From: Streptomyces sp. NBC_00335 | GTDB lineage: Bacteria > Actinomycetota > Actinomycetes > Streptomycetales > Streptomycetaceae | Reading direction: 5' to 3' | Assembly (NCBI RefSeq): GCF_036127095.1 | Contig: NZ_CP108006.1 | Coordinates: 7,245,501-7,309,500, forward strand | DNA: 64,000 bases | Shown: positions 20,412-44,530 of the stretch, in pieces | Layout of the letters: the number at the start of each line of letters is the position of its first letter | How positions within the stretch are numbered: the first letter of the stretch is position 1 | The notes under the pieces: model-generated | Told to the model about the DNA's origin: nothing | The model's input: the letters and a program-made list of their open reading frames with translations, nothing else | The model's database searches: none | Made by a program: the position numbers and the translations under genes

Positions 20412-20543
20412 CTAGCCCGCCGACTCGCCGGCGTGGGGGCTGAGGACGCCCCTGCCGATCAGGATGACCAGCAGGATGCCGAGCAGGACCCGGTAGATCA
20501 CGAACGGCATGAAGCTCTTGCTGGAGATGAACGTCATGAACCA
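20412..20543 (-). pseudogene. uppP: displaced 3' end of uppP (43 codons)
   Basis: The minus strand encodes WFMTFISSKSFMPFVIYRVL and continues to SPHAGESAG and a stop. It matches the C-terminus of the intact UppP encoded at 43652-44530, which has WFMKF at the start and ESGG at the end. The identity ends abruptly at the Trp codon; further to the right the sequence is unrelated. There is no start codon, so it is not expressed as a protein. Its last residues differ from the intact copy (VILIGRG against FVLVGAG), showing that the two 3' ends came from different sources: this one is probably the original chromosomal end and the other came with the element. Confidence 0.92.
20479..20532. repeat. left attachment site (attL-like), 54-bp exact repeat in uppP
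   Basis: The 54 bases from CCGAGCAGGACCCGGTAGAT to GCTGGAGATGAAC are identical to 43719-43772. With two mismatches the match extends over 73 bp (20471-20543). This is the expected remnant of site-specific recombination within uppP. Confidence 0.85.
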
Positions 20544-20704
20544 GTTCAAGCGTCGAGGTCCTGAGCGGCTTTGAGCTGCTGTTTCCACCACTCTTCAAGA
20601 TCGAATCAGAGAGCAGTGGGAGATGGCACCCTGCAGTGCTCTCCCTCGCTGGCCACGAAGCGCAGCGACCTGGTTTGCAGCGAATCGGCAATCTCCTGCT
20701 CCAT

Positions 20705-20815
20705 GGTCAGTGCCGATGAGGCGGTTGCCGAGCTGGCGCAGGGCGGGGTTGTAGTCCAGGTCCCGGGCTCGTTGCTTGTCGTAGTAGCGGCGGGCGCCGG
20801 GCGAGATCTGCAGCG
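20705..20815 (-). pseudogene. IS110-family transposase C-terminal scrap
   Basis: The minus strand encodes ISPGARRYYDKQRARDLDYN followed by PALRQLGNRLIG, the conserved C-terminal region of IS110-type transposases. Both sides are lost; the RuvC-like catalytic half is absent. It is a dead fragment at the left end of the element. Confidence 0.7.
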
Positions 20816-20826
20816 TGCAGATCGGA

Positions 20827-21500
20827 GAAGTAACCGGGACGGACCCGGCCGCCCTGGCCGTGTTCATCGGTAACCAGAGGACCGGGCACCGCATCCCGCA
20901 CCGGCTGGCCTGCAGAGCTCTCGGGGTGTCGGAGTCCTGGTTCTACAAGTGGCGCGACAAGCGCCACCGTGCGTGAGGTCCGGCGCGGACAGATGGCCGA
21001 CGTGGTCCGGCAGATCTTCGAGGACTCCGGCGGCACCTACGGTTCCCCGAAGGTCTGGCGTCTCCTGGTCCGCGCCGGCTGGAGGGTCTCGGTGAACACC
21101 GTCGCCCGTCTGATGGCCGAGCTCGGGCTGGCGGGGCGGAAGGTGCGCCGACGGCGCGGGCTGACCCGGCCCGGCAAACGGCCGGCGGCCCCGGACTTCG
21201 TGCGGCGGGACTTCACCGCGGACGCCCCGGACCAGGTGTGGTGCGGCGACATGACCGAGATCACCACCGGTGAGGGCAAGCTCTACCTCGTCACCGTCAT
21301 CGACCTGTTCTCGCGCCGGCTGCTCGGCTACGCGATGGGCGCACACCATGACGCTGACCTGGTCGTGGCGTCCTTGAACATGGCCGCGGCCACCCGCGGC
21401 GGTGACGTGAAGGACGTGATCTTCCACAGCGACCGAGGCGGCGAGTACGGCTCCCGGCGCTTCCGGCGGTCCTCCGCGACCACCGGGCACCCAGCCATGC
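20827..21500 (+). pseudogene. IS3-family transposase OrfB, frameshifted and truncated
   Basis: The first part encodes HRIPHRLACRALGVSESWFY and KWRDK and stops; a second frame continues with YGSPKVWRLLVRAGWRVSVN, DQVWCGDMTEI and VIFHSDRGGEYGS. These are the HTH-like N-terminus and the first two aspartates of the IS3 DDE integrase core. The region with the catalytic glutamate is missing after about 21500. At least one frameshift and a 3' deletion make it inactive. The OrfA half is not present upstream; the fragment begins directly after an IS110 scrap. Confidence 0.88.
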
Positions 21501-21625
21501 CCACACCCACCCTGACCTGCTGTTATTTACGCGTCAGAGTCGCTCAGCGCTGGACACTGCGCGCCGCGACACACGGACAACCTTGATCCCGTCGGCGCTC
21601 GCCGGCCCCTCACCAGGAGATGACC

Positions 21626-21710
21626 ATGCCTCGCGCTGCCCGCTTCGCCGCCACGTACGCCCTGCTCACCGGCGCCCACGAGGTCGGCGACTACATCGTT
21701 ATCGCGTCAA
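21626..21710 (+). pseudogene. 5' scrap of a small membrane-protein gene
   Basis: An ATG with AGGAG six bases upstream opens a frame reading PRAARFAATYALLTGAHEVG followed by DYIV. This resembles the N-terminus of small membrane proteins seen in actinomycete integrative elements (a hydrophobic helix with A-H-x-x-x-D). After about 25 codons the similarity ends and the frame runs into unrelated sequence. The assignment is tentative. Confidence 0.35.
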
Positions 21711-21793
21711 ACAACGTGTCCACCATGCAGAAGGCTCGGTGTCGTGAACCGGCCGGGCTCGACACACCCGACAGGGGACCCGTTGCAGGCCCG

Positions 21794-21826: not shown

Positions 21827-21882
21827 GCAGAGCTATCGTCGACAGACACGGGCCTCTGCCTAGGTTCCGGCTCCGGCAGGCG

Positions 21883-23265: not shown

Positions 23266-23685
23266 TCACCATTCGCCGATGTCGAAGTTGGCCGCGACGG
23301 GCATGACATTGTCGTCGAACACAAGGACCAGGTAGGTGCCGAAGCCGACCAGTTGATCGTAGAGACGCTCGGCGAGCTGATAGGTCTCCACCGTGTCGGA
23401 CCGGGACCGGGCGGTCAGCATGGCCGGAACGGATTCGAGGGGAGGACCAGGATCCGGCTCGCCCACGTACAAGCTCACGGTCACATCGTCGCTCTGGAAG
23501 CCGTAAAGGCGGCCGCCGTCTTCCTGGGTGACGCCGGGGGCCTGCCCGAGGGCCACGTCCAGGATGCCCCCGACGTCCTGCCAAAGCCGGTCTCCGAAGC
23601 CGGTGGTGTCCCACGGCCCGGCGGTGGGGCCGACCCGGAACTCGAAGTCCCGATCGCCACCACCGTGCTTCTCAAAGTCTGTCAT
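23266..23685 (-). CDS. candidate immunity protein of the RHS toxin
   Basis: An intact frame of 139-141 residues (the ATG at 23691 or the one at 23685, both behind GAGAG). It is acidic, soluble and without signal peptide: MTDFEKHGGGDRDFEFRVG at the start, DVGGILDVALGQAPGV in the middle, and VLVFDDNVMPVAANFDIGEW at the end. I do not recognise a named family. Its position, size and charge fit an immunity gene: it follows the RHS gene by 98 bp on the same strand, directly after the variable toxin tip, and is intact among broken neighbours. This role is inferred from the layout of polymorphic toxin loci. Confidence 0.65.
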   Translation of the reverse strand: MTDFEKHGGGDRDFEFRVGPTAGPWDTTGFGDRLWQDVGGILDVALGQAPGVTQEDGGRLYGFQSDDVTVSLYVGEPDPGPPLESVPAMLTARSRSDTVETYQLAERLYDQLVGFGTYLVLVFDDNVMPVAANFDIGEW

Positions 23686-23789
23686 GCGCATCTCTCGCTC
23701 TCTGTCTCGCCGTCTGCCTCGGAAGTATCCACGTGAACGATCGGCGGGGTGCCGGGAGTCCCGGCACCCCGCCGACAGGAGCCACGTGC

Positions 23790-26700
23790 CTACTTGACGT
23801 CCAGGTCGAGCATGTATCCGCGCCCGAAGACGATGACGCGTTGGATATGCGTGTTGCTGCGCTTGAAGTCGTCGATGCCCTTGTTCGCCGTCTTCTCGTC
23901 CATGCCGCCCTTGCGAAGATCGATCACGGCCAGGTCGACCTGCTGCTTTCGGTCGGCCTTCTTCAAGTGGTCGCGAAGACCGTCGTCACGCGTACTGGTC
24001 ATAGCCTTGAAGTCGGCCCGCTTGTCGTCCACCCAGGCATCACCGGCATGCGGCGCGAGCTGGTCGTCGTTCCGGGACATCACATTGTGTCCGTGGATCG
24101 CCAGGGTCAGCGCGATCTGGAACTCGGCGGGGTCGTCGAACCCGAATCCCTCCTCGCCCTGCTTGTTCTTGCGCTTCCAGGACTCGTCGATCCGCTCCAT
24201 GATCTTTTCCACGTCGCTGCGCGAGGGTCCCATCATCTCCAGGAGGTCGTGCGCCAGGTTGGCCGCGCCGCAGCCGTCCCGCGCGCCCCTGCGGCAGAGG
24301 TCCTCGTCGATGTCCTCGATCTCCTCTTCCAGGTAGTTGTGGAGGTCCCAGTCCCCGTCGAGGATCTGGTTGACCCGCTCCTTGCGGAGCTTGGCGGCGA
24401 TCTCCGCGTTGGAGAAGAGCAGCTGCTCCAGGTAGCGCTCGTAGCGGGGCGCGCCCGCCGGGGGGTGGCCGGCCCGGCCACGGCCGGTGTTGTAGTTCGT
24501 GCCGCGGTGAGGCGGCGGGTTCGACGTCGCCTTGCGGTCCAGGAGGATGTCCGGGATGCCTCCGGTGCAGGAGATCTCGCCGGTCCTGCACTCTGGCACC
24601 GCGAGACCGGAGGGGTCGCTGAGCGTGGTGGGGTTGTTGTTGGCGTAGCCGTAGCCGTTGAGCGACTGGTGCTGCTCCAGCGTCAGGTTCGGGTCCACGC
24701 TGATGAACTGCCCGATGGAGGGGTCGTACTGACGTGCCCCGACCTGCGTCAGTCCAGTCCCGGCGTCCGCCGACTTGCCGAGGAACCCCTTGTCGTCGGG
24801 CCAGGCCCCGGTGTCGCTGCCGCGCTGGGCGCCGAACGGCGTGGTGTACCGCTTGCTGAGGGCCTGGGCGCTGTCCGCGGAGATCGCGACGTGGCCCGTG
24901 CCGTGATGATCGACCGACAGGAAGGTCAGCTTCTCGCTGCCCGACTGGTTGGTGCGCACGGCCACGGTGCTGGTGCCCGCCGTGTAGTACCGGTTGGCCC
25001 ACTTCTTCCCGGACTTGAGGTGCACCTCGGTGTTCCCCAGGTACAGCACCGACTCGCCGGCGGCCGCGTTGTCACGGCGGATCAGCAGGGTGCCGTCGGC
25101 GTCGTACACGTAGCCCGTGGAGGTGCCGCCCTCGGTGAGCTTGCCCAGCCGGCCCTCGTGGTTCCACAGGAGCGACTGGCGGACCGTCGAGGCGGCACTC
25201 TCGGCACGGCTCTCCGTGCGTCCGGAGTCGTCGTAGGTGTACTGGGCCGCCGCCGACGCGCAGGCGTCGGGCGCGGTGGAGCGGACGACCGCCTTCAGGG
25301 CGTGCCGGCGGGTTGTGTCGTAGCAGTACGTGGAGGTGACCGGGTCGGCCCCGCCGCGGGTCTCCGTGGCCCGCTGCCCGGAGGTGTTGTAGGTGAAGCC
25401 GCTCCAGTACGGAGCGGGGCCGCCGAGGTTGGCCGCGGTGCGTCCGGCCGTCGAGCAGTCGGCCGTCTTCGGGGTCCAGGCCTCGGTCAGGCGGCGCAGC
25501 CCGTCGTAGCCGAAGCACTGGTAGTCGCCGCCAGTGCCCGTGTCGGCCCGGTCGTGGATGGAGGTGACATTGCCCGCTTGGTCGTAGGCGTACTGGAGGT
25601 CCTGCACGGGACCGCGGGTCTGGTCGTCGGTGGCGGAGGCGAGCATCCGGCCGGTGCCGGGCTCGTAGGTGCGGGAGAGGAAGATCCGCTTGGCCGCGGC
25701 CGAGGTCCCCAGCTCCAGCTGGTGGACCTGCCCGGTGGCCGAGTAGTCGGCGCCCAGCAGGTAACCGGAGAGCCCGGAGAGCTGAGTGGGCAGGCCAGCG
25801 TCGTTGTAGAGCGTCTCGACCGTCTCGGCGGGCAGCCCGCCGGCAGCCGGCTCCTTGACGTTGTTGAGCGTTCCGTCGAGCCGGTAGGCGGTGCCCAGGG
25901 CGACGGTCTCGGTGACGGCACCGGAGGTGACCAGCGGATCGGAGGCGGGCAGTGTGAGGGAGGTGGCCGTCGCCCGGCCGACTGTGTCGTACGCGGTGAC
26001 GGTCTTGGTGTACTCCTTGCTGCCTGCCTGGTTCACACCGTTCTCGTAGCGGACGGACTTGTCGGGCAGGCCCTTCAGCAGGCCGTCGAAGGTCCACTTG
26101 GCGAGCTTGTTGACGTCCGTGCGGCTGGTGTGCCACATGTCGGTCTTGCGGCCGAGCTCGTCGTAGCCGAAGAGGATCAGATGCCCCTCGGCGTCCTTGG
26201 TGTGGTCGACCTGATCGAGAGCGGTGTAACCGGTGGTGATGGTGCCGGTGTCCGGGTCGGTGCTGGACACCTCCCGCCCGTACAGGTCGTAGGTGTGAGA
26301 CCAGGTCGAGCCGTCGGGGCCGGTGACGGTCAGCGGCTTGCCGTCACGGGCGTAGGTGTGCGTCACCCGGGTGTACGGGGCCGCGGTCGTGGCACCGTAC
26401 TGTTTGTCGTCCGGCTGCGGACCCGCGTAGGTCCGGGTCTCCGCGGTACGGCCGAGCGCGTCGGTGATGACCCGCGAGGCGGTGCCGCCCTGAACGGCGG
26501 TCGTGGCCACCGAGTCGCCGGTGTACGTGGTGCGGGTGTCCCACTTCTTGGTGCCCCAGGAGGACAGGGCGGTTTTCACTACCCGGCCCGCGCCGTCGTA
26601 CACCATGTCGTTCTGGACCGGCGCCTGGGCGTTTTCGATGCCGTAGTAGCTGCTGTTGGGCGCCTTGGCGCTGTCGAACGCGTCCGCCTGCGTGACCACG

Positions 26701-29700
26701 GCCAGGCCCCGCGCGTCGTAGCGGGTGTCCGTCAGGATCCGGCCGCCGTTGACTCCGGGGGTCTGGGTCTGGATCTTCCGCAGCAACGAGTCGTAGAGGG
26801 TGTAGCTGGTGCGGTAGCCGACCCCGTCCGCCTTGAGCTGCGCCACCGAGGTCCACGACGGTGTGGTCTGGCTGAGCTTGTAGGTAAAGGAGCCGCTCGG
26901 GCTGTCACCGGCGGCCTTGGACCGGTTGGGCAGCCAGACGGCAGTGGTACGGCCGAGGGCGTCGCGGGTGTACTCGGTCCTCTTGAGATTGGCGTCGAGG
27001 GTGTAACTGACCGACCCGCGGGCCGGGTCGAAGTAGGTGTACGACTTGTGGGCCTGGCCGTTGGAGGCCAGCTTGGGGTGGGTGACGATGACGCCGGTCA
27101 CCGGGCCGCCGGCCGCTGGATAGTAGGCGGTGGTGGTGGCGTTGCCCTTGCCGTCGGTGGACTTCAGCGGTCGGCCGAGGCCGGCGGTGTCGGTGTCGGT
27201 GTCGAACTGGGTGGTGACGACCGTCTGCCAGGATCCCGCTCCGGGGTTGCGGTCGGCGGTGCCGTTCGCGGCCGGGTATCCGGTGGGCTGGCCGGTCCAG
27301 GTGGGCAAGCCGAGCGTCGGGGTCTGGGACGCCGTCCAGGCGGTGGCGGCCGGGTTGTCGAAGACGGTGGCCGCGTCGGACAGCACATCGCCGCGCGTGG
27401 CCGTGCTCGTCGGCAGGGACAGTTTGTCGTCGGAGTCCGCGCATGGCTTGCCGACGGTACGGGTCCGGGAGACCAGCGAGGTCAAGCCCTTGCCGGTGTT
27501 GCGGGCGTACCAGGTGCGGGTGCAGGTCTCGTCGCCGGTGAACGACCAGTCACCGTGGTTCTCGACCTTGGTGATCATGCCGTAGGTGCCGTCGTAGGTG
27601 TTCGTCGACGCCGTGGTCCGCCACTTCTTCGCAGCGGTGAGCCAGGTGTACTCGTAGCTGCGCGCCGTCCGGACGAAGTGGGCCCTGGAGTGCGCGTAGG
27701 ACTTCTGTTGGCTGGCCGTCTCCTTGGACCATAGGTTGTTGAAGGTGAACGCGATCGGGGTGGCCCCGTCGTAGGTGATCTCCTGCCGGAGCTGTCCGGC
27801 GTACTGATCGTGGTCGTCGGCCGCGGCGAGGGTCGCCGAGGGGACGGGAACGGGGGTCACGGTCGCCGTGCGACTGCTGCCGTCCTTGCGCCGGTCGCCA
27901 TGCATGCCCTGCATGAACAGCCGCACGGACTTGCCACGGATGCTGCCCGGTTCACCGGTGTACGTGGTGACCTGCTGGTAGCCGCGCCAGTTCGACCACG
28001 TGCGCTCCTTCTCCTCGGTGAACGGGTCGTCGTTGTAGTGCCAGCCGGCCTTGGCGTACTCGTAGCCCAGTTCGACGGCGGGGTTCTTCGCCGCAGGGTC
28101 GCTGGTGCTGACGGCGAGGACCCGGTACTTGTGGAACCAGTCGAGGGCCGGGTCGCCGCCGTTGATCGGCCAGTACACCGGGTAGCAGGACAGGGCGTTG
28201 TCGTCCTCGGCGGCCGGCATCCTGGTGCCACGCACGCACTCGGGGTTCGACAGCGCGACTGTGGTGATCGAGCCGGACTCCGCCGTGATGGTGGAGATCC
28301 GGGGTCGGGTCAGCGGCAGGATGTTCGCGCCGCCCGGCTGAGTGCCGCCTTCGACGCGATTAGGCCGCTGCTGGTAGGTGAAGCCCACCGGGGGCAACTC
28401 GACGGCGGGGCTGCCGTTGAGACCCGTGCGGTGCAGCTTCGTGAGCGTGAGGACCTGGTCCGAGCTGTTGCCGATGTCCTGGCCGTCGAAAAACTCCTGC
28501 GTGAACGCGTACGAGTCGACCGGCTTGAACGCGTCGGGCTCGGCCGCGGTCGACCACGACTGGGTCTCGACCTTGACCAGCCGCATGCGTGAGAAGAAGT
28601 GCGGGCCGGTGCTCAGGCAGTCCTTGGCGGTCGCTGCGCAGATCGAGTCGAAGGGCACGTCCGGCCAGTTGTCGGCGGTGTCCTTGGTCAGCTCGGCGCA
28701 TGTGGCGGCCGTGCAGCGCTCCTTGTACGAGAAGACCACGCGGGCGGCCGGCTTGCCGGTGAACAGGGCGCCAGCCCGCTGCCCGTAGCGGATCTCCGTG
28801 GGGTGACCGCCGCGTACGTAGTCGGCGAGCTTGGTCTTGTCGCCGTTCTTCGCGTAGTGGTTCAGCTCCTTGGCGTACCAGTACGTCGAGGCGTTCCCGT
28901 GGACGTCCTGCACCAGATCCAGGTTCCACCTCCAGGCCTGGGTCTTCGCGCGATCCCCGAAAGCAGCGCCCGCCGTGTACCCAGGCTCGCCGCTGTCGTC
29001 GCCGAACACCGGCACCGTCCACACCGACTCGGTGCGCTCGGCCCCGGCGCCGGGAAGCTTGTTCAGGCCGAAGGTGTACGTGGTGCCGTCACCGGTGGTG
29101 ACCTTCCAGTGCTCGCCCTTCCCGTCGCCCTTCCCCGCAGCCTTGTCGTCACCGTCGTCGCCGTTGTCGGCGCCGGTCTCGTGGACTACCAGGGAGGCGT
29201 CGTCGTTCTTCAGCCGCCACGTGCCGGAGGCGTCATCCTTGACCAGCTCGTTGGCCGTGCCGTTCAGGACGAGGGTGGCGTTCTCGTATTTCCAGCACTG
29301 ATCGGACTTGTCCTTCTGGCCGTCATCCTCGCAGCTGCCGTACTTGCGCTCGATGTAGGACTCGGTCAGCGAGAAGCCTTCACCGATCAGCGAGCCCTGG
29401 TTGTTCGTGTTCGCCGTCCGGCCGTCGATGCTGCCCGAGTCATAGGCGAGGCTCAGCGGAGGGACGGGACCGGCCGGGGACGGCGGCAGGGTCAGCGGGT
29501 AGTTCCAGGCAAAGGAACCGGAGGAAGCCCCGGCTTCCCAGGTCGCCGACGGGGTGAGCGGAGTGGCTGTCATGTCGCCGCCACCAGTCGCAGACTCCCC
29601 GCCCGAGGTGGCGGTCACCGCCATCACCATCGGGGCGGAGCGTGCGGTGAGCACGGTGTCCGCGGTGACCTTCTGCCGTACGGGGTCATTCGCGGACGGC

Positions 29701-33400: not shown

Positions 33401-34227
33401 GGCACCGGCTCCTGGGAGTGCAGCACCGCCGGGACGGCGGCGGCTGACCTCTTCGCGACGGACGCGGAAGCACGTGCCGGGCCGGCGTGCGCAGGGTCGG
33501 CGTCGCCTGCCGAGTTCCACATCTGAGCGCTGGGCGAACGGAACAGAACCTGCCCGTTGGCGTCCACGGCCTCCATGCTGCCCGCGGCACCCGGACGGAC
33601 GGCCAGTCCCTCGGCGTTGAGGGCGTACTCGATGGTGCTCAGGGCCGGGTCGGCCGCGGCCTTGAGCGTCTCGACCTCCAGGACTTGCCGGAACCCCTCG
33701 ACGGTCGCCGTCAGGATGAGGTTCACGTCGGGACGTACGTTCTCGTACACCGCCCGACTGCCCTCCAGCCTCGGAGCGGGCAACTCGCCCGGCCAACCCA
33801 GCGACACGCTGCGGCCGTTCTCGCCGATGGTCACCAGGTCCGCACCCGGGCCGCCGGCGGAGAACGAGATGTCGACAGCGGCGGCCTTCGGCCCGACCGT
33901 GCCGTCGGCCCTCGTGACCAGTGTCGGGTCGGGCTTCGTCCAACCGTTGCCGGCATTCACCCGGACCGGGGCGATCGCCTTCTCCAAGGTGAACGTCTTG
34001 CCGTCAGGGTTGGCGTAGACGGTGTCCCGCTCCGTGCGTTCCTCTGCGACCTCGACCCGCTGCCCGGTGTTGAAGGCCTCGACGAGCGCGAGTTCGGAGG
34101 GCGTGCCTGCCACCTGCGCGGGGGCGGGGGTCGCGGAAACCGGGACCGCGGGCGCAGCGGTGAGGGCGAGGGCCAGCACTGTGAGCACGCCGCAGAACCG
34201 GCCGACGCCCCTTCCAGGACGTCTCAC
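30460..34227 (-). CDS. large secreted LamG-domain protein, upstream partner of the RHS toxin
   Basis: A 1255-residue protein with a signal peptide (CGVLTVLALALTAAPAVPVS). The N-terminal 250 residues contain the block DGTVGPKAAAVDISFSAGG, which recurs in the gene at the right edge of this window. Around residues 330-500 is a DNRLRE-like beta domain (YTNRMYFEFAPDKLKGKHVL). A Fn3-like stretch follows, then two LamG/concanavalin-like domains: SYTVSAWVRLEEGG near residue 855 and a second from about residue 1030 to the end. It probably binds cell-surface or extracellular polysaccharide or assists surface display of the RHS protein. The start is a GTG with GGAGA six to seven bases upstream. It heads the cassette with the RHS gene and the immunity candidate. 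Confidence 0.88.
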   Translation of the reverse strand: MRRPGRGVGRFCGVLTVLALALTAAPAVPVSATPAPAQVAGTPSELALVEAFNTGQRVEVAEERTERDTVYANPDGKTFTLEKAIAPVRVNAGNGWTKPDPTLVTRADGTVGPKAAAVDISFSAGGPGADLVTIGENGRSVSLGWPGELPAPRLEGSRAVYENVRPDVNLILTATVEGFRQVLEVETLKAAADPALSTIEYALNAEGLAVRPGAAGSMEAVDANGQVLFRSPSAQMWNSAGDADPAHAGPARASASVAKRSAAAVPAVLHSQEPVPVAPPEEGDPLSGPGSGDEAAVMRVAVAEDSVKVVPDSALIARTTEAELPLYIDPSVELNESERTVLSSDGDVFYNFDGGTNGMSVGRCGTAVIGGVSYYCGNGYTNRMYFEFAPDKLKGKHVLDATFKVTETWSFSCDARWVDLERTNNISSATKWPGPAVLDQMGDRHVSAGRGSACSPSQPKAPIAFNDNPEETDENLTPTVRDFAAGKFPRLTLMLMAKDEKDTVSWKRFDDDAVLVVSYVSKPATPTEYGIRSGAGRVCSTNEGQPSVLTDPTPDLLATPETAVGGEAEGRLRVYFDVDVKNGTTWADAPQPASGSVKPSPGYAAYSSTAKNFPAQTKTWDNPLVDGKLYRYNAFTYSLYNSDSTQLVSSATPWCYFTVDSKAPRKPTLSSWTVYSECVSGGSCTPGGAPGKAGTVLFGPGAGETTPNTGYRYRLSTTATWSAWMSGTTYRATITPPSSGTKLLHVQAKSAAYPLGGEEQIVRFLVAEGPKAIARWSFDEKSGVAVDATATDPALRNDLTLTGAVRTPDGRRGEVVKTAASGTVPEVRGPDQALRTGATASASTTRPVLETAASYTVSAWVRLEEGGRNRTVAGQDGTHHSAFFLSYCAAVDTWCARLAAADAATTDLEGQRVNAQASAQLNVWTHLAMVADHEKNVLSLYVNGQLQGTDAITTNWPSSGGFQVGRAKYRGAYVDQFPGQIDEMTVWQAAKSAEEIATEARLLDGPDGTGLPHLELVADLNPSGASGSVLRDTTSNYGQALTLGSGAVLDGSAVVLDGTGGGDLATQVVDPTGSFTVSVEALVDGAALAGKPNGHKAQIVSQRTATGTSWGLWFEKTSVDTTGHEVVDENGDPVIDEETGQPVSETWALGRWHFGRVNTDGTTVSVQSQETAVLGTEVQLTGAYDAQSQTVSLFLVDRQGVPTAFTAQAGTGVLTVGKGWTGSDWGSRLPGRITQLRLWAGAVHNAQQKTAVVGD

Positions 34228-34930: not shown

Positions 34931-35880
34931 AGGCACGGCTTCCAAGATCATGGAGTTCTCTACGTTCCGTGATCCGAGTGGAAGGCCGTGCCTGCCGACG
35001 CATCATCGCTGATCCCGCCTGCCCTTGACCAACTCCGCCAGTACCCGCAGGTCGTGCCCGAGGAGATCCCCGGTCTGCTGGAGCGGCTGGCCGAGGTCCC
35101 GGATCCGCGTGATCCACGCGGGATACGCCACCGCTTGGCTGCCGTGCTCGCGCTCACCGCGTATGCGGTGCTGGCCGGAGCGACCTCACTGCTGGCAGTC
35201 GGTGAGTGGATCGGCCGATGCCCCCAACGTACGTGCTCCAACAGGTCGGTGTCCGCCCCGATCCACTCTCGCCCAGGCGGGTCCTGCCCGCCGAGACGGC
35301 GGTCCGCCGACTGCTGGCCCACGTCGACGGCGACGCGCTGGACCGAGCGGTCGGGAGCTGGCTCGCAGAGCGCTGGCCGAAGACGACCGGGGCCGCCGGG
35401 ATGCGCGGCCTGGCCGTGGACGGCAAGAGCCTGCGGGGTGCGGTCAAAGGGAGGGGGCGGAAGATCCACCTGCTCGCCGCGCTGGAGCACACCACCGGCC
35501 TTGTCCTGGCACAGCGAGATCACCTGCTTCCAGCCGCTGCTGGACACCGTCGCTGACCTGGCCGGAGTCGTGGTCACCAGCGACGCGATGCATACCCAGT
35601 GCGAGAATGCCGACTACCTCCTCGGCCGGGCGGCGCACTACATCGTGATCGTCAAGGGCAACCAGAAGAAGCTGTGCCGACAGCTCAAGTCCCTTCCCTG
35701 GAAAGACATCCCTCTCCAGGGACGCACCCGGGGCGTCGGCCACGGCCGCTCGGAGATCCGCCGGATCAAGGTTGCCACCGTGAACAACCTCCTCTTCCCT
35801 GGATCTCGCCAGGCTGTCCAGATCAAGCGCCGGCGCACCGACCGCAAGACCGGCAAGACCACCCCTCGAGGTACTCGACC
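34931..35880 (+). pseudogene. ISAs1-family transposase, frameshifted, 3' end lost
   Basis: The frame opens at GTG 34988 with [20 protein letters not shown], the start of ISAs1 (H-repeat) transposases. It shifts near 35220 into [20 protein letters not shown] and [15 protein letters not shown], and shifts back near 35520 to [25 protein letters not shown] and [11 protein letters not shown] short in-gene deletion accompanies the second shift. The conserved D of LAVDGK and D of SDAMHTQ are present, but the end of the gene is cut by an IS3-type element. An inverted repeat at 34931-34950 and 34970-34993 (AGGCACGG arms) overlaps the start codon and probably belongs to the IS leader. The gene is inactive. 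Confidence 0.85.
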
Positions 35881-35948
35881 TCTGAGGCTGATCCTTTGGA
35901 GTGGACACCCTGACAATGGATCTTGATGGTCCAGGAAGGGATGCCCAG

Positions 35949-36754: not shown

Positions 36755-37332
36755 CTCGGCGACGCGTGGCGCGCGGCGGTGCCGAACGGGAAGTTCTTCG
36801 GTGCGACGGGTACTGCGATCCAGGACAAGGACCGTTCGACGTTCAAGCTGTTCGGTGACCCTGACGATCCGGACTTCGTGATGTCGCGGTACACGCCGGA
36901 GCAGTCCATCGCCGATGGGTTCACCAAGCCGGTGATCGTGGAAGGCCGAGCTGTCGGTTTCAACCTCGACAAGGAGGCCCTGGACGAGGCCTTCGACGAG
37001 CTGGCCACAGCGGAGGGCCTGGACGAGGAGGAGAAGGTCTTCCTGTCGGGGAAGGCTTCTCACATCGAGACGATCCTCTCCAACCCCGAGCGCGTGGCTG
37101 CCGTGTGCAGAGACATCGTCGACCACTTCCTCACATACGTCGCGCCCCTGGGGCAGAAGGCTCAAGTCGCGGCCTACAACCAGCGCCTGGTGATCGCCTA
37201 CACCAAGGCAATCGAGGCCGAGCTGGAGCGCCGCGAGGCCGTCATGCCGGAGGGCGGATGCGCGAGGTCGGCGTGGTGATGCACGTCGCCGACAGCAAGG
37301 AGACCCCGAAGGAGTTCAAGAAGCACCGGAGC
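36755..37332 (+). pseudogene. hsdR: type I restriction enzyme HsdR fragment
   Basis: The frame reads LGDAWRAAVPNGKFFGATGT and TFKLFGDPDDPDFVMSRYTP, then EQSIADGFTKPVIVEGRAVG, which match the SF2 helicase motor region of HsdR after motif III. After GGCARSAW it stops, while the next frame continues with VVMHVADSKETPKEFKKH, the following HsdR segment, so a frameshift separates them. The ATPase and nuclease N-terminus and the C-terminal third are missing. It is joined upstream to a group II intron remnant and downstream to an unrelated minus-strand fragment. Confidence 0.82.
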
Positions 37333-37784: not shown

Positions 37785-37843
37785 GACCTCCTCGGCGAAC
37801 AGATGACCGTATCAGGAGGAGCCCCGCCGACACGATCCGTCCG

Positions 37844-38679
37844 TCAACACGGAGCACCGCAACTTCCCCTGTCGTCGGCCGTTGCAAGAATGGTGCCCGC
37901 CTCGCCCACGCCGTCCGCGGTGGACGAGTCTTCCTTGACCGAGGCAGTGGCCGCGCTCACGGCGATTAGCATCGGCATCCCTCGGTCGAGGAGACCGACG
38001 CGGCCGGGCTCGAGCGCAGCGGCCTGCTTCTTGGAACTGGTGAGGAGCAGACCGGTCAGCTCGGCGGCGGTGGACTGCTCGAACCACCACACGGCGCAGC
38101 CGGCCTCGTCATCGTCCTCGTCGTGGGCGTCCGCGAGAATCTCGAGTAGCGGACGGTTCGGCTTCACAGGCTTGGCCGCGCGGTCGAGTGCCGCCTGGTG
38201 CTTGGCCTCGCTCTCATCGCGGCGCTCGATCAGCTCGTGCAGGGACTCGCCCTGAGACCAGGTGTACTCCCGCCCCTGCATCGCGTTACGCCGGTAGTTG
38301 ACCTTTTCCTCGTACGCTATGGCCTTCTCGAACAGCTCAGGGTGGCGGTGAGACCGACCCACTCGTGCTTGCGCTGGAAGAAGCAGAAGTAACAGCCCGA
38401 CCACGTGCGCCACTCGTAGTAGGCCGGCAGACCGGTACCAGCTTCGTCGAGAATGCGATCTACGCCGGCGCGGTCGATACCGTCCTCGCGGAACGGAAAG
38501 ACGGCGCTGATGTTCGGCTTGGTGCTTACGTAGCCAAGACGGTTCTCGTCTGCGCGGATCGCCACGTACGAGATCACCTCATCGTCGCCGACCCACTCCT
38601 CCAAGGGCTTGAGCTTTAGGTTCTTGGTGCTTCTCTGCACTTCACTCTCATGGGTGAAGGCGGGTATGTGACTCGTCAA
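37844..38679 (-). pseudogene. PAPS reductase/DndC-like sulfurtransferase remnant
   Basis: The first frame encodes WVGDDEVISYVAIRADENRL, STKPNISAVFPFREDGIDRA and YYEWRTWSGCYFCFFQRKHE. A frameshift near 38345 leads into HPELFEKAIAYEEKVNYRRN and GREYTWSQGESLHELIERRD. This is the central and C-terminal part of the PAPS-reductase family with its Cys-x-x-Cys pair, including relatives found in DNA phosphorothioation and other defence systems. The N-terminal ATP-pyrophosphatase motif is absent. With both a 5' deletion and a frameshift the gene is inactive. Confidence 0.72.
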
Positions 38680-38780
38680 AGGGCCTCCGAGATGAATGGG
38701 ATGGGGTCAGGGGGCGGCGCCGGCGACGGCAGGGCAGATCCCCACGCGTCGGTAAGATCAGCGCTCTCAATGGGGGTGCG

Positions 38781-39599
38781 ATGCGAACATCAGGGCGGGG
38801 CGGCGAGGGGCAGAAGTACGCGCTGACCTCGGACGAGGACGACAGTGACTTCTGGGGCTTCGCCCACGAAGCCGAGGGGTTGTTCACGCCCCTGCCAGAT
38901 GAAGAAGGAGCGCGCCGAGTGCACCTCGCGGGTTGCCTCCCGCAGGGTGGCCTACTTAGGTGCGTTGACCACGTCGGCAGTCGTCGTGCCGTGGCGGGGA
39001 ACGCCTGGTTCGAGCTCCTCGACGGTGACGGTGCCACCATGGGGTCCTACTTCGTCAACGAGGTCACCGTCATCGACGTCAAGCCCTCCGCCAGTGGTGC
39101 CGACCTCGTCGACCTCACGGTGACGCTCTGGTGCGAGAACGCACTGCCCGGAGCGGAACGACCGTGGGAGCTGGTCCGCACCGGTCACCTGAACCACACC
39201 GGAATGTGGCACGAACTCGCACCCGGGGACCGACACGCGTGGCTGTCGGTGGCCCTGTGGTCCCGGGAGTACCAACGCCAGGGGAAGCCCGATGCGCCTG
39301 CGGGCCAGGTGTTCACCTTGGATGGCCGACACATCGTCGACCAAGACAGCTTCTACTGCGCGATCGGTGAGGCCGTCAACGGGCCCGGCGGGTACTTCGG
39401 CTGGAACCTGGACGCTCTGGACGACTGCCTTGTCGGCGGCTGGGGCGCGACCACTCCGTTCACTTTGCACTGGGACTTCTCTGCCGAGGCTCGGACGCGG
39501 TTGGCGGAGCGCGTGCCCGCCGGTGATCGCGAGGTTGTGCTGTTCGACCTCCTCCTGGAGATCTTCGAGGAACGGGGTGTAAGCGTCATCCTTCGGTGA
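38781..39599 (+). CDS. orphan barstar-domain protein with a long N-terminal extension
   Basis: An intact protein of 272 residues. The C-terminal 90 residues are a barstar (ribonuclease inhibitor) domain: VFTLDGRHIVDQDSFYCAIG, GPGGYFGWNLDALDDCLVGG, and a final helix and strand ending in LEIFEERGVSVILR. The G-Y-F-G-x-N-L-D-A-L-x-D-C-L pattern carries the acidic residues used by barstar to plug a barnase-like active site. The 180-residue N-terminal part is a beta-rich domain (WFELLDGDGATMGSYFVNEV) of unknown type. No barnase-type toxin gene is adjacent, so it may protect the host against incoming toxins. It is among the few intact genes in the middle of the element. Confidence 0.8.
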   Translation: MRTSGRGGEGQKYALTSDEDDSDFWGFAHEAEGLFTPLPDEEGARRVHLAGCLPQGGLLRCVDHVGSRRAVAGNAWFELLDGDGATMGSYFVNEVTVIDVKPSASGADLVDLTVTLWCENALPGAERPWELVRTGHLNHTGMWHELAPGDRHAWLSVALWSREYQRQGKPDAPAGQVFTLDGRHIVDQDSFYCAIGEAVNGPGGYFGWNLDALDDCLVGGWGATTPFTLHWDFSAEARTRLAERVPAGDREVVLFDLLLEIFEERGVSVILR

Positions 39600-39634
39600 C
39601 AGCTCTTTGCTTCGAGGCATCGGTCTGGGGAACG

Positions 39635-42085
39635 TCATTCGGACTCCTGTGGACGGCGGTGTGCGGGGATGCCGAGGTGGACAGCTGGTCGCTGGGCTCG
39701 GCGTTGGGTCTCGTCGCGCTTCGCGCGGAGGAAGGTGAGGGTGAGGTCGATGCCCTCGATCTCACCGATCCAGCCTTCGGCCTCGGCCTGCGTCCTGCGT
39801 TGCAGGAGGTCGGCTTCGAGCTCGGAGAGCCGGGCGAGCATCTTGGGATTGACGTGGAGCATCGGGCAGCGGATGCAGGCATGTTCGTGCTGGCAAGGGG
39901 TGCCGTAGGGGCGTCCGCAGGAGCCGAGCTCGACCTTGCGGCGGTCGAAGTGCTCCTCGAACTCGGTCCACTCCTGCTCGGTGGCGTCCCGGTACTCCTC
40001 CGAGGGGCGGACTTGGCGCCTCTGGTGGAGGTGGGCCTGGTAGTGGCGGATCACGTCCTCGTCGAAGACGGCGACGTAGCCGCGGGTGGTCTGGATGCTG
40101 AGGTGACCGAGCAGTGAGGCGCCGATGTGGATGGGCAGACCGCTGTTGACCAGCTCGGTGGCGAAGATCCTCCGGAAGTCGTGCGGAGTGAATTTCAGCC
40201 CGCGGAACCCGGGGTGGGTCTCGGCCAGGGCCTCGCACCGTCGGCTGATCATCTGCTGAATGGTGCCGGGGTTGAAGATCTTCGACCCGATCGCTCCGTT
40301 CTGGCGCTGGAAGAGGAACGGCATCTGCGCACTCCAGACCTTGTCGTGCGGGTCGTAGCGGCTGACCAGCGGAATCGGCCTTCCTCGCCGGCCGTGGCGC
40401 CGGATGATCGAGGCGATGACGTGGAACAGCTCGGCCGACATCGGGATGACGCGCTCGCGGTCGGTCTTGGACGGTTCGATGACGAGCAGCGCGATGACCT
40501 CGCCGTTCGCGCGCTGATACTGGCGGATGCTGAGGTGGGTCAGCTCGCACAGCTCCTCGATGCGCACGCCGGAGTGCCGCAAGGTCTCCACTGCCGCCCA
40601 GTCCCAGAAGGCGGCCTCCTCCTCCGTGCCGATGTGCCTCAGTTCACCGGAGCCAAGCTCCAGCACGCGGGTGGGAACGGCATCGCCGTGCCGGAGCCGC
40701 TTCTGGTCCGACTCGCTGATCACCCGGCGATAGGCGTTGCCGGCGAAGGTGAACTCCTCCCCGTCGGCGGCCTGGTCGGCGCGTTCGCGCAGGAGCCGGG
40801 CATGGTCGTAGCGGGACTCGACGTGGTCGACCAGGACGGGTAGGAGCGGCTGGCGCTGTCGGGTGCGGTCCGCGGAGCGTTCGGTTCCCTTCCGCCGGCG
40901 GACGCCCAGGCCATGGAATTCACCAGGCGGGACGGGACACGGTGCGACCCAGGCCGCCCAGCGTTCAGGTTCAGCAGCAGCCCAGGTGTGCAGGTCGTAG
41001 TAGAAGCTGCGAACCGAGATGACGATGTCGTCCTGGCCCCGCCGGTGGGTGCCGTCGTCCTTGAGACGGATCGTCTCGCGCCAGCGCGTGTAGAGGTCCG
41101 GTGCGATCCGAAGTCCCTGCTGTCCGGGGTTGAGCTGCTCGATCTTCACCCAGAAGTGCTTGACCAGCAGGAGCGCGAGCTGCTTCAGACTGGAGTAGTC
41201 GAGATCCGCTCGGCGCCGGCCGAAGTAGTCGATCAGCAGGCCGCGGACGGCCTGGTCGCGGATCCCGTACTGATCGACGAGCTCCTCGATGGTCCGCTGA
41301 CCGCGCATCATCGCCGCCCGCATAGTCGTCGGCGTGGAGACCGGGAACCGCCCCATCGTGATCAGGGCCGTCCACATCCCGTGCCCGAACAGGCGGTTGG
41401 AGGCCGGTTGTCCGGGCTGGAGACGGCAGCGGGCCAGCCGGTTGTCGTGCGCGTACTGGAGGATCGACTCCGGCGTGATGTCAGCCAGCGCGACGCCCTG
41501 ATAGGTCAAGAGCGTGCACATGTCGAGCACTGCCTCCCGCTGGTGCTGGAGCCGCAGCTCCTGTGCGGCGATGTGCTCCTCGAAGGTGACCAGCAGCGGG
41601 TCGTTCTGCGCGGAGATGAACAAGGGTGTGAAGTTGTTCAGCTGGTTTTGCCGGAAGGCGAGCATCGTGGGCTGGACGACGCGAAGGCAGAACAGCGTGC
41701 GGACCCCCGGGGTGACCGCGAGGCCGGTCGTCCTGCGGGCACCAAGACTGTTCGCCTTGATCAGCCCCTTGCCCAGAGGGCTGGCGTCCCACCGCTCCTG
41801 CCAGGTGTGCCCCGGGTGGGTGGACAGGTACTGAAGGATGTCGCGGGTGGCCTGAGCACGCTGGTGCCGGGTAACGGTGGAAGCGTCCTCCCAGACGTCG
41901 AAGGCCAGCTTGGAGATGTGGTTGATCGACGCTTCAGACAGTTCTCCGTGCGGTCGCGGCGGGGGATCCGAGACCGCAGGCTGGGGCTTCATCGGACCGC
42001 CCACGAACCGGCTGGGAAAGGTGAGCCCCTCCACGATGGGCCCGTGCCGGCGGCTGACACCGGTGGTTGTGCTGGACCTAGCCAC
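39635..42085 (-). CDS. large tyrosine recombinase (phage-integrase type), 816 residues
   Basis: The C-terminal half carries the tyrosine recombinase catalytic domain: the first Arg in HSGVRIEELCELTHLSI, the H-x-x-R of FTPHDFRRIFATELVNSGLP near residue 635, and the tyrosine in LGHLSIQTTRGYVAVF near residue 669. About 450 N-terminal residues form a large arm- and core-binding region. After the tyrosine comes a 140-residue tail with several cysteines (CGRPYGTPCQHEHACIRC), a possible zinc-binding module. I start it at the GTG at 42085, which overlaps the TAG of the upstream recombinase, although the frame is open to 42187. The two recombinases probably act together on the uppP att site. Confidence 0.88.
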   Translation of the reverse strand: MARSSTTTGVSRRHGPIVEGLTFPSRFVGGPMKPQPAVSDPPPRPHGELSEASINHISKLAFDVWEDASTVTRHQRAQATRDILQYLSTHPGHTWQERWDASPLGKGLIKANSLGARRTTGLAVTPGVRTLFCLRVVQPTMLAFRQNQLNNFTPLFISAQNDPLLVTFEEHIAAQELRLQHQREAVLDMCTLLTYQGVALADITPESILQYAHDNRLARCRLQPGQPASNRLFGHGMWTALITMGRFPVSTPTTMRAAMMRGQRTIEELVDQYGIRDQAVRGLLIDYFGRRRADLDYSSLKQLALLLVKHFWVKIEQLNPGQQGLRIAPDLYTRWRETIRLKDDGTHRRGQDDIVISVRSFYYDLHTWAAAEPERWAAWVAPCPVPPGEFHGLGVRRRKGTERSADRTRQRQPLLPVLVDHVESRYDHARLLRERADQAADGEEFTFAGNAYRRVISESDQKRLRHGDAVPTRVLELGSGELRHIGTEEEAAFWDWAAVETLRHSGVRIEELCELTHLSIRQYQRANGEVIALLVIEPSKTDRERVIPMSAELFHVIASIIRRHGRRGRPIPLVSRYDPHDKVWSAQMPFLFQRQNGAIGSKIFNPGTIQQMISRRCEALAETHPGFRGLKFTPHDFRRIFATELVNSGLPIHIGASLLGHLSIQTTRGYVAVFDEDVIRHYQAHLHQRRQVRPSEEYRDATEQEWTEFEEHFDRRKVELGSCGRPYGTPCQHEHACIRCPMLHVNPKMLARLSELEADLLQRRTQAEAEGWIGEIEGIDLTLTFLRAKRDETQRRAQRPAVHLGIPAHRRPQESE

Positions 42086-43274
42086 CGAACACCGCCTTGA
42101 TGTCATCCGCGGAGTACCCAGTGGGGTAGCTCGTCGCCGGCCGCGGCGTGCTGTAGTGCTCCGCGACCTTGTCGAACATCTCCTCAACCCGCGCGGTCAG
42201 GTAGCGGCTGGTGGTCTGGATGTTGGTGTGCCGCATGATCGCTTGGACCTCGACAGGGGTGAGCTTCCCGCCGTTGGCCATCCGGGATGCCGCCGTGTGC
42301 CGGAGGTCGTGCAGGGTCCAGTTCGTGCCCAGCAGCTCGTTCGCCCGCTGCATGATCCGACGCATCGCCCAGTAGGACAGGGGGCGATCGCTCCCGCGAC
42401 GAGTTCGCCAGACCGACTCGCCCCGTGGCGGCGTGCCCGCCTCGTCGAGGTAGTGGGCCAGCCGGACGAATGCCTGCGGCGAGGCCGGCACCGCTTCCCT
42501 CTCCCGGGTGCCCTTGGAGATCACGTAGACCCTCTGGCCAGCCCAGTCGATGTCGTCCACTCCGACCCCGAGCAGCTCGACCGCTCGCGCGCCGCTGGAG
42601 ACGTAAAACTCCAGCAGGGCGCGGTCGCGCTCGCAGCCCATGCGGTCGAACAATTCGTCCCAGAGCCGGTCGGGAATCGAGCGGGGCGGCCGGTCGGAGA
42701 CCTTCTGCCGTAGCCGTGCCCGCCCCACGACCGCCCGCGGCTCCAACGGGCTTCGGTGAGCGAGGGCCCGTCGACGCTGCGGAGAGATCGGGACGGGATT
42801 GACCACCGGCCCGTTGCCCTGATGAGCATGGAACCCGTAGAAGCCGCTGACCACCGACAACGCGTGGTTGATCGTCCTGGGCGCATACCCGGCGCGCAGC
42901 GCGGGCTTGCCGGTCCTCAGATTGACCGACCCCGGTGCGGCGCCACCTGCCTGTGTCCGCTGGCGCTGCGGATTCGAGGCCGTCCGTAGCCATCCCGCCA
43001 GCACCGCGACCTCAGACTCGGTCGCCTTCTCCCACGCCACTCCCAACAGCCACAGCAGCCGGAACCACCGCAACAGGCCGTACCCGTAGCTGCGTACCGT
43101 CAACGGGCTGCAGTCGTTTAGCGCCAGGTCCCGCAGGTAGGCGGTGGCCGCCTCGATCTCGTCGTCGTACGCGTTCACGACGACGTACGGAGGGTGGACG
43201 CCCCGAGCGGGGACAACGGCCCCTACCCGGGGCAGCTCGGCCCGCCCCTCGATCAGTTCATGTCGCAGTTCCAC
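42078..43274 (-). CDS. tyrosine recombinase (XerC-like), 398 residues
   Basis: It has a SAM-like N-terminal DNA-binding domain (LTVRSYGYGLLRWFRLLWLL) and the catalytic domain with Arg in SSGARAVELLGVGVDDID, H-x-x-R in LHDLRHTAASRMANG near residue 321, and Tyr in HTNIQTTSRYL near residue 356. The GTG at 43274 has GAGGAGG six bases upstream, much better than the start at 43298. That ribosome binding site lies within an 11-bp inverted repeat (43284-43322). The stop overlaps the start of the large recombinase, so both are made from one message. It is the gene closest to the right end of the element. Confidence 0.92.
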   Translation of the reverse strand: MELRHELIEGRAELPRVGAVVPARGVHPPYVVVNAYDDEIEAATAYLRDLALNDCSPLTVRSYGYGLLRWFRLLWLLGVAWEKATESEVAVLAGWLRTASNPQRQRTQAGGAAPGSVNLRTGKPALRAGYAPRTINHALSVVSGFYGFHAHQGNGPVVNPVPISPQRRRALAHRSPLEPRAVVGRARLRQKVSDRPPRSIPDRLWDELFDRMGCERDRALLEFYVSSGARAVELLGVGVDDIDWAGQRVYVISKGTREREAVPASPQAFVRLAHYLDEAGTPPRGESVWRTRRGSDRPLSYWAMRRIMQRANELLGTNWTLHDLRHTAASRMANGGKLTPVEVQAIMRHTNIQTTSRYLTARVEEMFDKVAEHYSTPRPATSYPTGYSADDIKAVFGG

Positions 43275-43283
43275 GGTGTTCCT

Positions 43284-43322
43284 CCTCGTTGATCGCACTG
43301 ACCATCACGCTGATCAACGAGG
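43284..43322 (-). promoter_or_regulatory. inverted repeat covering the recombinase ribosome binding site
   Basis: CCTCGTTGATC and GATCAACGAGG form perfect 11-bp arms separated by 17 bases. In the recombinase mRNA one arm includes most of the GAGGAGG ribosome binding site, so folding would hide it. A protein operator is the other reading. Confidence 0.6.
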
Positions 43323-43469
43323 GGACTTGGTGCAGATAACTGTGCACCAGCGCATCTGGGGGCTGGGAAGCGTGCCTTGGTAGACCTCAAGCCAGTGGTC
43401 GAAGTCGCGGGTCGCGTTGAGACGCACGATCGGCTTGCCGACGGCCGCTTCGAGGCGGTGCCGGCCGCC

Positions 43470-43509
43470 ACGCGGAAGGGCCCGCACTGCCGTGCGGGCC
43501 CTTCCGCGT
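43470..43509. terminator. perfect 18-bp hairpin near the right end of the element
   Basis: ACGCGGAAGGGCCCGCAC pairs fully with GTGCGGGCCCTTCCGCGT around a 4-base loop. It lies about 140 bp beyond the stop of the rebuilt uppP and ahead of the recombinases, so it can end uppP transcription and shield the recombinase genes from it. The remaining bases between 43323 and 43651 show no gene. Confidence 0.85.
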
Positions 43510-43651
43510 CATCCCCCTACTTTGCGGACGCACGCGTCCTAGTGGTGCGTATCCCGGCTCTCTGGTGGGAGATAAGTGGGAGATGATCATGGCGAGGTGC
43601 TGCAATCAGGCGCTAGGAAATGCTCGATAGAGCTACCTGTACGGCCCTGGT

Positions 43652-44530
43652 TCAGCCGCCGGATTCGCCCGCGTGCGGGCTCAGGACCCCTGCTCCCACC
43701 AGCACGAACAGCAGGATTCCGAGCAGGACCCGGTAGATCACGAACGGCATGAAGCTCTTGCTGGAGATGAACTTCATGAACCACGCGATGACCGCGTAAC
43801 CGACGAGGAAGGCGACGACCGTGGCGAAGATCGTCTGGGGCCAGGCGATGTGGCCCGGGTTCTCCATCACGTCCTTGATCTCGAACAGGCCCGAGGCCAG
43901 CACGGCCGGGATGGCGAGGAGGAAGGAGTAACGGGCCGCCGCCTCGCGGGTGAAGCCCAGCAGCAGACCGCCGGAGAGCGTCGCGCCCGACCGGGACACA
44001 CCCGGGATCAGGGCCATCGCCTGGCAGAGACCGAAGATGAGGCCGTCCTTGACGCCCAGTTCCTTCAAGGTCTTGCGCTCGCGGACGACTCGGTGCCGAC
44101 CGCCCTCTTCGTCGCGCGCCGCCAGCCGGTCGGCGAAGCCGAGCACGAGGCCCATCACGATGAGGGTGGTGGCGATCAGCCGCAGATCGCGGAACGGGCC
44201 CTCGATCTGGTCCTTGAAGGCGAGGCCGAGGACACCGATCGGAATCGAGCCGACGATCACCAGCCAGCCCATCTTGGCTTCCTGCTCGGACCGCAGCGCC
44301 TTCGTGTACAGCGAGCGGAACCAGGTGGAGATGATCTTCGCGATGTCCTTGCGGAAGTAGATCAGTACGGCGGCTTCGGTGCCGATCTGCGTGATGGCGG
44401 TGAAGGCCGCTCCCGGATCGTGCCAGCCGGCGAACGCCGCGGTCAGCCGCAGGTGGGCGCTGGAGGAGATCGGGAGGAATTCCGTAAGTCCTTGGACGAG
44501 ACCGAGGATGAGGGATTCGATCCAGTTCAT
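43652..44530 (-). CDS. uppP: undecaprenyl-diphosphatase
   Basis: A 292-residue integral membrane protein of the BacA/UppP family. The first motif is GLTEFLPISSSAHL with Glu17 and His26, and the second is LIPGVSRSGATLSGGLLLGF. It dephosphorylates undecaprenyl diphosphate to recycle the lipid carrier for peptidoglycan and gives bacitracin tolerance. The gene is complete, but its last 20 or so codons (FVLVGAGVLSPHAGESGG) come from the integrated element, since the original 3' end is now at 20412-20543. It lies 48 bp from the TVP38 gene on the same strand and is probably expressed with it. Confidence 0.96.
   Translation of the reverse strand: MNWIESLILGLVQGLTEFLPISSSAHLRLTAAFAGWHDPGAAFTAITQIGTEAAVLIYFRKDIAKIISTWFRSLYTKALRSEQEAKMGWLVIVGSIPIGVLGLAFKDQIEGPFRDLRLIATTLIVMGLVLGFADRLAARDEEGGRHRVVRERKTLKELGVKDGLIFGLCQAMALIPGVSRSGATLSGGLLLGFTREAAARYSFLLAIPAVLASGLFEIKDVMENPGHIAWPQTIFATVVAFLVGYAVIAWFMKFISSKSFMPFVIYRVLLGILLFVLVGAGVLSPHAGESGG
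43719..43772. repeat. right attachment site (attR-like), 54-bp exact repeat in uppP
   Basis: Identical to 20479-20532. It encodes the segment ISSKSFMPFVIYRVLLG of UppP. Outside the 73-bp near-identical block the two copies diverge at once on the left copy's interior side. Confidence 0.85.

What the first reader, a model, noticed from the sequence alone, without database searches (positions are those of the whole stretch)
20412..43783. An integrative element that uses the 3' part of uppP as attachment site
A 73-bp piece of uppP occurs at both ends with two mismatches, including 54 identical bases. The left copy is a headless 43-codon 3' end still followed by a terminator-like hairpin; the right copy completes an intact uppP whose last residues differ. 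Two recombinase genes lie at the right end. Elements usually target tRNA genes; use of a cell-wall lipid-carrier phosphatase gene, rebuilt with an imported 3' end, is unusual. It also lets the element swap the UppP C-terminus.
Basis: partly seen in the sequence, partly recalled or inferred. Interest (0 to 1): 0.85.

Follow-up and report, generated by a model that had tools for sequence, protein, structure and literature searches.

The report
Worn-out island in the uppP gene
A 23-kb stretch of DNA sits in the end of a cell-wall gene of a Streptomyces-type bacterium, at a docking site already known from mobile islands of plant-pathogenic Streptomyces; this copy has lost its own integration enzyme, and the same docking site is also used by viruses of these bacteria.

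Summary
In detail: a 73-bp repeat with two mismatches lies at both ends, and related genomes show the empty site (an intact uppP joined directly to the left flank). The left copy is the native 3' end; the 3' end of the intact uppP is imported. The site is not new. uppP is bacA, the published attachment gene of the Streptomyces pathogenicity island PAISt (tyrosine recombinase IntSt) and of related bacA islands. The window's right arm contains one published PAISt junction primer exactly, and its left arm is the C-terminal scrap of an IntSt-family integrase, 96% identical in DNA to an intact one elsewhere. So this is an eroded, probably immobile member of a known kind. What goes beyond the papers I found: the same integrase clade and site are used by tailed prophages, phage contigs with attP-type junctions carry the uppP 3' end, and the PAISt integrase nests among phage integrases. 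38 of 392 sampled genus genomes match this element's right arm, a few by a short hairpin only. Novelty: new member of a known kind.

The parts
20412..20543 (-). Native 3' end of uppP left behind by the insertion (43 codons and stop), host side of the junction
   Evidence: 92% to the empty site of G256 over the last 59 nt, downstream DNA 78-91% to G256, G277, G320; alignments to empty sites L080/L081
20471..20543 (-). att repeat, left copy; its published crossover palindrome is degenerate by one base
20544..20710 (-). Left arm of the element: C-terminal scrap of an IntSt-family tyrosine integrase, catalytic residues missing, a stop inside
   Evidence: 167 bp at 96.4% to G089 and L211, 94.6% to G166 and G283; 41 residues at 85% with one stop
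20969..21586 (+). IS3-type transposase fragment (HTH_21 + rve)
   Evidence: Pfam
23266..23691 (-). Small ORF directly behind the Rhs gene, candidate immunity gene by position only
   Evidence: no PHROG or Pfam match; position
23790..30338 (-). Cargo: 2182-aa Rhs-repeat protein with CdiA_C-like end (polymorphic-toxin type)
30460..34227 (-). Cargo: 1255-aa protein with LamG-type lectin domain
34988..35926 (+). Transposase fragment, DDE_Tnp_1-associated type
36779..37279 (+). Fragment of a SWI2/SNF2 ATPase, as in type I restriction subunits
38627..43348 (.). Nested separate mobile module: two tyrosine recombinases and a Barstar-domain gene, own borders
   Evidence: right border shared with five genomes, left border with three
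38781..39599 (+). Barstar-domain protein of the nested module
   Evidence: Pfam E=2.4e-14; 85-87% identical in G041 and G140
39635..42187 (-). Second tyrosine recombinase of the nested module (850-aa open frame)
42078..43298 (-). First tyrosine recombinase of the nested module (406 aa)
43473..43651 (+). Right arm of the uppP element, with a terminator-like hairpin at about 43472-43507; contains published PAISt primer f at 43601-43620
   Evidence: 38 of 392 genus genomes match, a few by the hairpin only; primer exact
43652..43710 (-). Imported 3' end of uppP
   Evidence: 74% to G256 but 97% to G358 over sense positions 811-879
43711..43783 (-). att repeat, right copy, palindrome intact
43652..44530 (-). 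Rebuilt, intact uppP (bacA)

Best explanation
The 23-kb stretch is an eroded, probably fixed member of the bacA(uppP)-integrated islands of Streptomyces, the class of PAISt. A circular element carrying an IntSt-family tyrosine integrase and its own copy of the uppP 3' end recombined with the chromosomal uppP 3' end (the insertion is shown by the empty sites and the sequence switch; the enzyme is inferred from the scrap and from relatives). The host's 3' end was pushed to the far side as a headless copy; uppP stayed intact because the element supplied a replacement 3' end. Later (inferred) the integrase was truncated to its last ~55 codons, the left palindrome decayed, insertion sequences and a separate two-recombinase module landed inside, and a large Rhs-type cargo remains.
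For: Empty sites. Switch of identity: the uppP body (bases 1-744) is 94-99% to G256 but 74% behind the core; to G358 the body is 76-84%, the tail 97%, the next 60 bp 95%. Left arm 96.4% to the DNA of an intact integrase gene. That integrase family abuts a uppP 3' fragment in 19 of 30 loci and 4 further genomes; in 13 of 17 named-genome loci and 20 of 24 viral loci, with 2 more in each cut off by the contig end inside the repeat and 2 in each without (these 27-49% identical). Full uppP and tail have the same order and strand in 19 of 19 genomes where both are on one contig. The PAISt contig NZ_AEJB01000361 (L220) carries a member of the clade beside a uppP tail; the paper's primer f is in the window's right arm exactly. 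IntSt action at bacA was shown by experiment in PMC4057263.
Against: No intact integrase, excisionase or transfer gene was found among the window ORFs scanned, so mobility is inherited evidence only. In the right copy the switch to imported sequence lies ~55-60 bp 3' of the published crossover palindrome, not at it; gene conversion or a donor with the same core would be needed. Only ~167 bp on the left and ~180 bp on the right are shared with other elements; the middle cannot be assigned.
Confidence: 0.92

Rival explanations
1. The two recombinases at the right end (39635-43298) integrated this element into uppP.
For: They lie ~350 bp from the right uppP end and both match the Phage_integrase family.
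Against: Relatives at 75-87% identity carry the pair with the same right border in other surroundings; only the window's own locus of 30 has uppP within 1.5 kb; other occupied uppP sites have a different integrase.
Confidence: 0.04
2. The element is the remnant of a tailed prophage rather than of an ICE or mobilizable island.
For: Two uppP-flanked inserts, in G173 and G137, are tailed prophages with the same integrase clade.
Against: The window's left arm is nearest to G089 (a ~476-kb island), and its right arm is of the PAISt type, while G173, G137, G094 and G117 are not among the 38 genomes with that arm. PHROG scans of 14 window ORFs found no phage structural gene.
Confidence: 0.15
3. The repeat is an ordinary segmental duplication of the uppP end with later insertions.
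For: Both copies derive from uppP.
Against: The right tail and arm match elements in other species better than the close relatives do; empty sites are exact.
Confidence: 0.02

Closest known systems
PAISt of Streptomyces turgidiscabies Car8 (ICE; bacA site; IntSt)
   Same: 3' end of bacA/uppP as site, ~130-140-bp duplicated 3' end, IntSt-family integrase abutting it, same right-arm sequence (primer f exact)
   Different: PAISt is 674 kb, keeps an active integrase and intact palindromes and carries virulence genes; the window's island is 23 kb and eroded
Sedentary islands PAISs1 (S. scabies) and PAISa1 (S. acidiscabies)
   Same: IntSt reduced to a short C-terminal remnant and a degenerate palindrome at one end (PMC4057263)
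   Different: They match the 105-kb nec1/tomA module; the window's cargo is Rhs and LamG genes
Non-virulence bacA islands and txt-null ICEs (PMC10711302, passages only)
   Same: Occupy bacA without known virulence genes, some in tandem
   Different: Gene content not compared here
Tailed prophages with this integrase clade (G173, G137)
   Same: Same gene, same end, integrase 3' end abutting the repeat
   Different: Phage structural genes and other right arms

Membership tests
PAISt-type bacA-integrated elements | Insertion at the 3' end of bacA/uppP with a duplicated 3' end | tested here: met
PAISt-type bacA-integrated elements | 8-bp palindrome in both copies | tested here: inconclusive
   intact in the right copy, degenerate by one base in the left; the published sedentary islands also have a degenerate copy
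PAISt-type bacA-integrated elements | IntSt-family integrase with its 3' end abutting the duplicated uppP end | tested here: inconclusive
   C-terminal remnant only, in the right place
PAISt-type bacA-integrated elements | Element right arm downstream of the rebuilt gene | tested here: met
   primer f exact at 43601-43620; 38 of 392 genomes match the arm
PAISt-type bacA-integrated elements | Present ability to excise and integrate | not testable with these tools
   needs circle PCR
PAISt-type bacA-integrated elements | Conjugation or mobilization genes | tested here: not met
   none in Pfam scans of 16 ORFs of the island, as expected of a remnant; lowers the claim ICE, not the claim bacA-integrated element
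Temperate tailed phage | Head, packaging and tail genes inside the element | tested here: not met
   14 window ORFs against PHROGs; met in G173 and G137
Tn554-like multi-recombinase element (nested module; name recalled) | Adjacent co-oriented tyrosine recombinases within a conserved border in varied sites | tested here: met
Tn554-like multi-recombinase element (nested module; name recalled) | Sequence kinship to TnpA/TnpB/TnpC of Tn554 | not tested
   resemblance is recalled only; the third gene here is a Barstar-domain gene

The most novel reading that the evidence does not exclude
The uppP/bacA docking system is in origin a temperate-phage lysogeny module. Tailed phages carry a uppP 3' end in attP, and the integrases of the large bacA islands, PAISt included, are branches of this phage integrase clade; phages and islands of up to ~480 kb therefore share one docking site, which explains repeated tandem accretion at uppP.
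Probability: 0.5. Interest if true: 0.6.

Novelty: new member of a known kind. Interest (0 to 1): 0.38.

Why it matters
It shows a known island docking site at work outside the plant-pathogen literature, in about a tenth of a 392-genome sample of the genus by the arm marker, and corrects which recombinase is responsible. If the phage link holds, it ties large Streptomyces islands to phage lysogeny modules and gives a simple marker (right arm plus integrase scrap) for past insertions. The exchanged UppP end shows how a housekeeping gene can be used as a site without being broken, though the protein change is slight here.

Tried and rejected
Considered and rejected: the right-end recombinases as the integrase; 'orf228' (38952-39638, -) as a third recombinase-type gene, since it has no family match and the opposite strand holds a Barstar-domain gene that is better conserved, 85-87% against 68-72%; a core with 11-bp arms and a 7-bp spacer that I noted, set aside because the published crossover is the palindrome; the idea that the att core tracks the host while the tail tracks the element, for which distance correlations over 19 genomes gave no clear support (core-body r=0.10, core-tail r=0.24).

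Led nowhere: close integrase relatives in annotated phages (4 records of 2 Gordonia phages at 25-28%) and plasmids (none). Nine paper searches: none of the titles or abstract beginnings listed reported phages using bacA/uppP in Streptomyces; papers outside this library were not seen. PMC11351099 passages did not describe the site.

Full report
WHAT IS THERE. The window lies at G000:C1:7245501-7309500 of a 9.0-Mb genome. Its genus appears to be Streptomyces, because contigs of same-genus genomes have the lengths of named Streptomyces records (G137:C74 112,135 bp and NZ_ALAP01000074; G094:C3 393,556 bp and NZ_JNZD01000003). The repeat at 20471-20543 / 43711-43783 is real, with two mismatches over 73 bp. 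No tRNA gene was found in the window.

EMPTY SITE. A 990-bp probe of the left flank including the left tail was searched in 392 genomes. Among the 30 loci returned, 24 show uppP beside the same downstream gene, 22 of them over at least 286 residues; one is the window, one (G166) holds only a tail, and four show no uppP. In G256 and G277 the window's two outer flanks (ending at 20544 and 43654) align to the two ends of the same 131 bp of one uppP.

WHICH END IS FOREIGN. The left tail is 92% to G256 and 90-93% to G277 and G320, the right tail 78-80%. Along uppP in the sense direction, the window is 94-99% to G256 up to base 744 and 98% over 757-811, then 74% over 811-879 and 51-57% beyond. To G358 it is 76-84% in the body, 78% over 757-811, then 97% in the tail and 95% and 85% in the next two 60-bp pieces. 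So the 3' end and arm were imported from an element related to the one in G358. At protein level the change is small: 3 of the last 60 residues differ from G256.

THE REAL INTEGRASE. Beside the left tail, 20544-20710 matches the C-terminal coding part of a tyrosine integrase. A 96-residue piece from G166 found relatives in 55 of 392 genomes (E up to 1e-8). Of the 30 loci returned, 19 have a uppP 3' fragment directly behind the integrase end and 11 do not. Of these 11, one contig ends early (L098), one is a remnant beside the downstream gene with the tail gone (G268, L107), and nine are 51-64% identical; identity alone does not separate the groups, since G130 (59%) has the tail. Longer stretches added G225, G258, G159 and G362. 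With the window this gives at least 24 of 392 genomes; the weaker integrase matches were not all checked for a tail. Intact members are ~455 aa; seven aligned members keep R208, R365, H388 and Y397, in keeping with R209, R375 and Y407 tested in IntSt (PMC4057263). In genome contigs 13 of 17 relatives, and in viral contigs 20 of 24, have the uppP tail directly behind; two more in each are cut off by the contig end inside the repeat, and two in each (27-49% identical) lack it. The collections overlap with one another and with the 392 genomes (for example G137, L213 and L228), so these counts are not independent.

ORDER AND SIZE. In 19 of 19 genomes in which the full uppP and a tail lie on one contig (the window included), the order and strand are the same. 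Of the 21 genomes searched, three (G330, G268, G335) gave no separate tail and five had tail and gene on different contigs. Spacing runs from 3.7 kb (G358) to ~476 and ~480 kb (G089, G283). G225 has two tails and G289 one plus a degraded second, consistent with tandem accretion. The sampled interiors of G089 and G283 share mostly collinear blocks at 88-96% (two pieces at 81-85%, one 91% block out of order), although DNA around their uppP is 74-81% identical (13 stretches per genome, not the whole interval), so these are probably related giant islands. G089 has the shared right arm directly behind uppP.

PHAGES. The ~53.5-kb insert of G173 encodes terminase, portal, major head, tape measure and endolysin proteins (10 ORFs scanned), and the ~62-kb insert of G137 encodes portal, terminase, tail protein, helicase and RecE-like exonuclease (10 ORFs scanned). 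Their uppP repeats are identical over 143 and 133 bp. Seven metagenomic viral contigs have the integrase, then a uppP 3' end, then DNA resembling prophage right ends: clear in L245 and L251 (mostly 86-92% to G173), L234 and L238 (about 75-82%), patchy in L241 and L242, weakest in L243, whose match starts more than a kilobase away. This is an attP-type junction, or a tandem prophage junction. None of the seven shows the usual host downstream gene within 5 kb, but a ~160-bp piece of L238 also resembles host-side DNA of G094 and G158. Flanking genes in L238 include an exonuclease and an endolysin. In a midpoint-drawn tree of 39 rows (partial and some duplicate loci left out) the PAISt integrase L220 nests with viral-contig integrases: the fork with L243 has support 100/99 and the fork that adds L238 has 99/99. 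The tree is unrooted in substance, so the direction phage to island is not shown. Many viral labels rest on IMG/VR; only G173 and G137 were checked for structural genes.

KNOWN SITE. PMC4057263 (parts 1-4 of 5 read) describes PAISt integrating at an 8-bp palindrome in the 3' end of bacA, a 141-bp duplicated 3' end, the IntSt recombinase, modular excision, tandem integration, and sedentary islands in S. scabies and S. acidiscabies with IntSt C-terminal remnants and degenerate palindromes. BacA is the Pfam name of this UppP. Primer f of that paper is exactly window 43601-43620; primer d matches with one mismatch. The paper notes that Pfam does not recognise IntSt; one clade member here (L243) also had no Pfam match. 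PMC10711302 (passages only) reports further bacA islands, some without virulence genes. The window fits the sedentary pattern: integrase scrap and one degenerate palindrome.

THE NESTED MODULE. The two recombinases at 39635-43298 with a Barstar-domain gene form a ~4.7-kb module. In G041, G124, G178, G198 and G140 the homology to the recombinase pair stops at the same right border; the left border and Barstar-side DNA are seen in G041, G124 and G140 only, interrupted in G041 and G124. The right flanks of G124, G178 and G198 resemble one another by eye; those of the window, G041 and G140 are different. Stretches around 12 relatives contain no uppP. In G198 and G178 an empty uppP lies about 37 kb away, on the 5' side of the gene in both, so these two may share an insertion site, but not the uppP 3' end.

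HOW COMMON. The right arm (43473-43651) matches 38 of 392 genomes, the window included, at E up to 1e-5; a few are short hairpin hits only, such as G306 and G339.

WHAT STAYS OPEN. The switch point lies ~55-60 bp behind the published crossover, and distance correlations did not resolve this. Whether the ancestor was an ICE, a mobilizable island or a phage-derived element is undecided; arms of the PAISt type favour an island. Mobility was not tested.

Noticed in passing
window 23790-30338 and 23266-23691: A 2182-aa Rhs-repeat protein with a CdiA_C-like end, followed by a small ORF that could be its immunity gene.
   Followed up: partly
window 38627-43348: Two-recombinase mobile module with a Barstar-domain gene; the recombinase pair is present in at least five other genomes of the genus with the same right border.
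   Followed up: partly
G089:C1:718500-1194706 and G283:C1:9156970-9636950: About 476-480 kb between uppP and its left-over tail, with an intact integrase at the end and mostly collinear blocks of 88-96% identity between the two genomes: candidate giant integrated islands.
   Followed up: partly
G289 and G225 uppP regions: Two uppP tails in a row (one of them degraded in G289), i.e. likely tandem insertions.
   Followed up: partly
right copy of uppP, window 43711-43783: The host-to-element switch lies ~55-60 bp beyond the published crossover palindrome.
   Followed up: partly
window 43472-43507: Hairpin at the inner edge of the right arm, matched on both strands in many genomes.
   Followed up: no
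G178 and G198, about 37 kb on the 5' side of an empty uppP: Relatives of the nested recombinase pair sit at a similar distance and side of uppP in both genomes.
   Followed up: no
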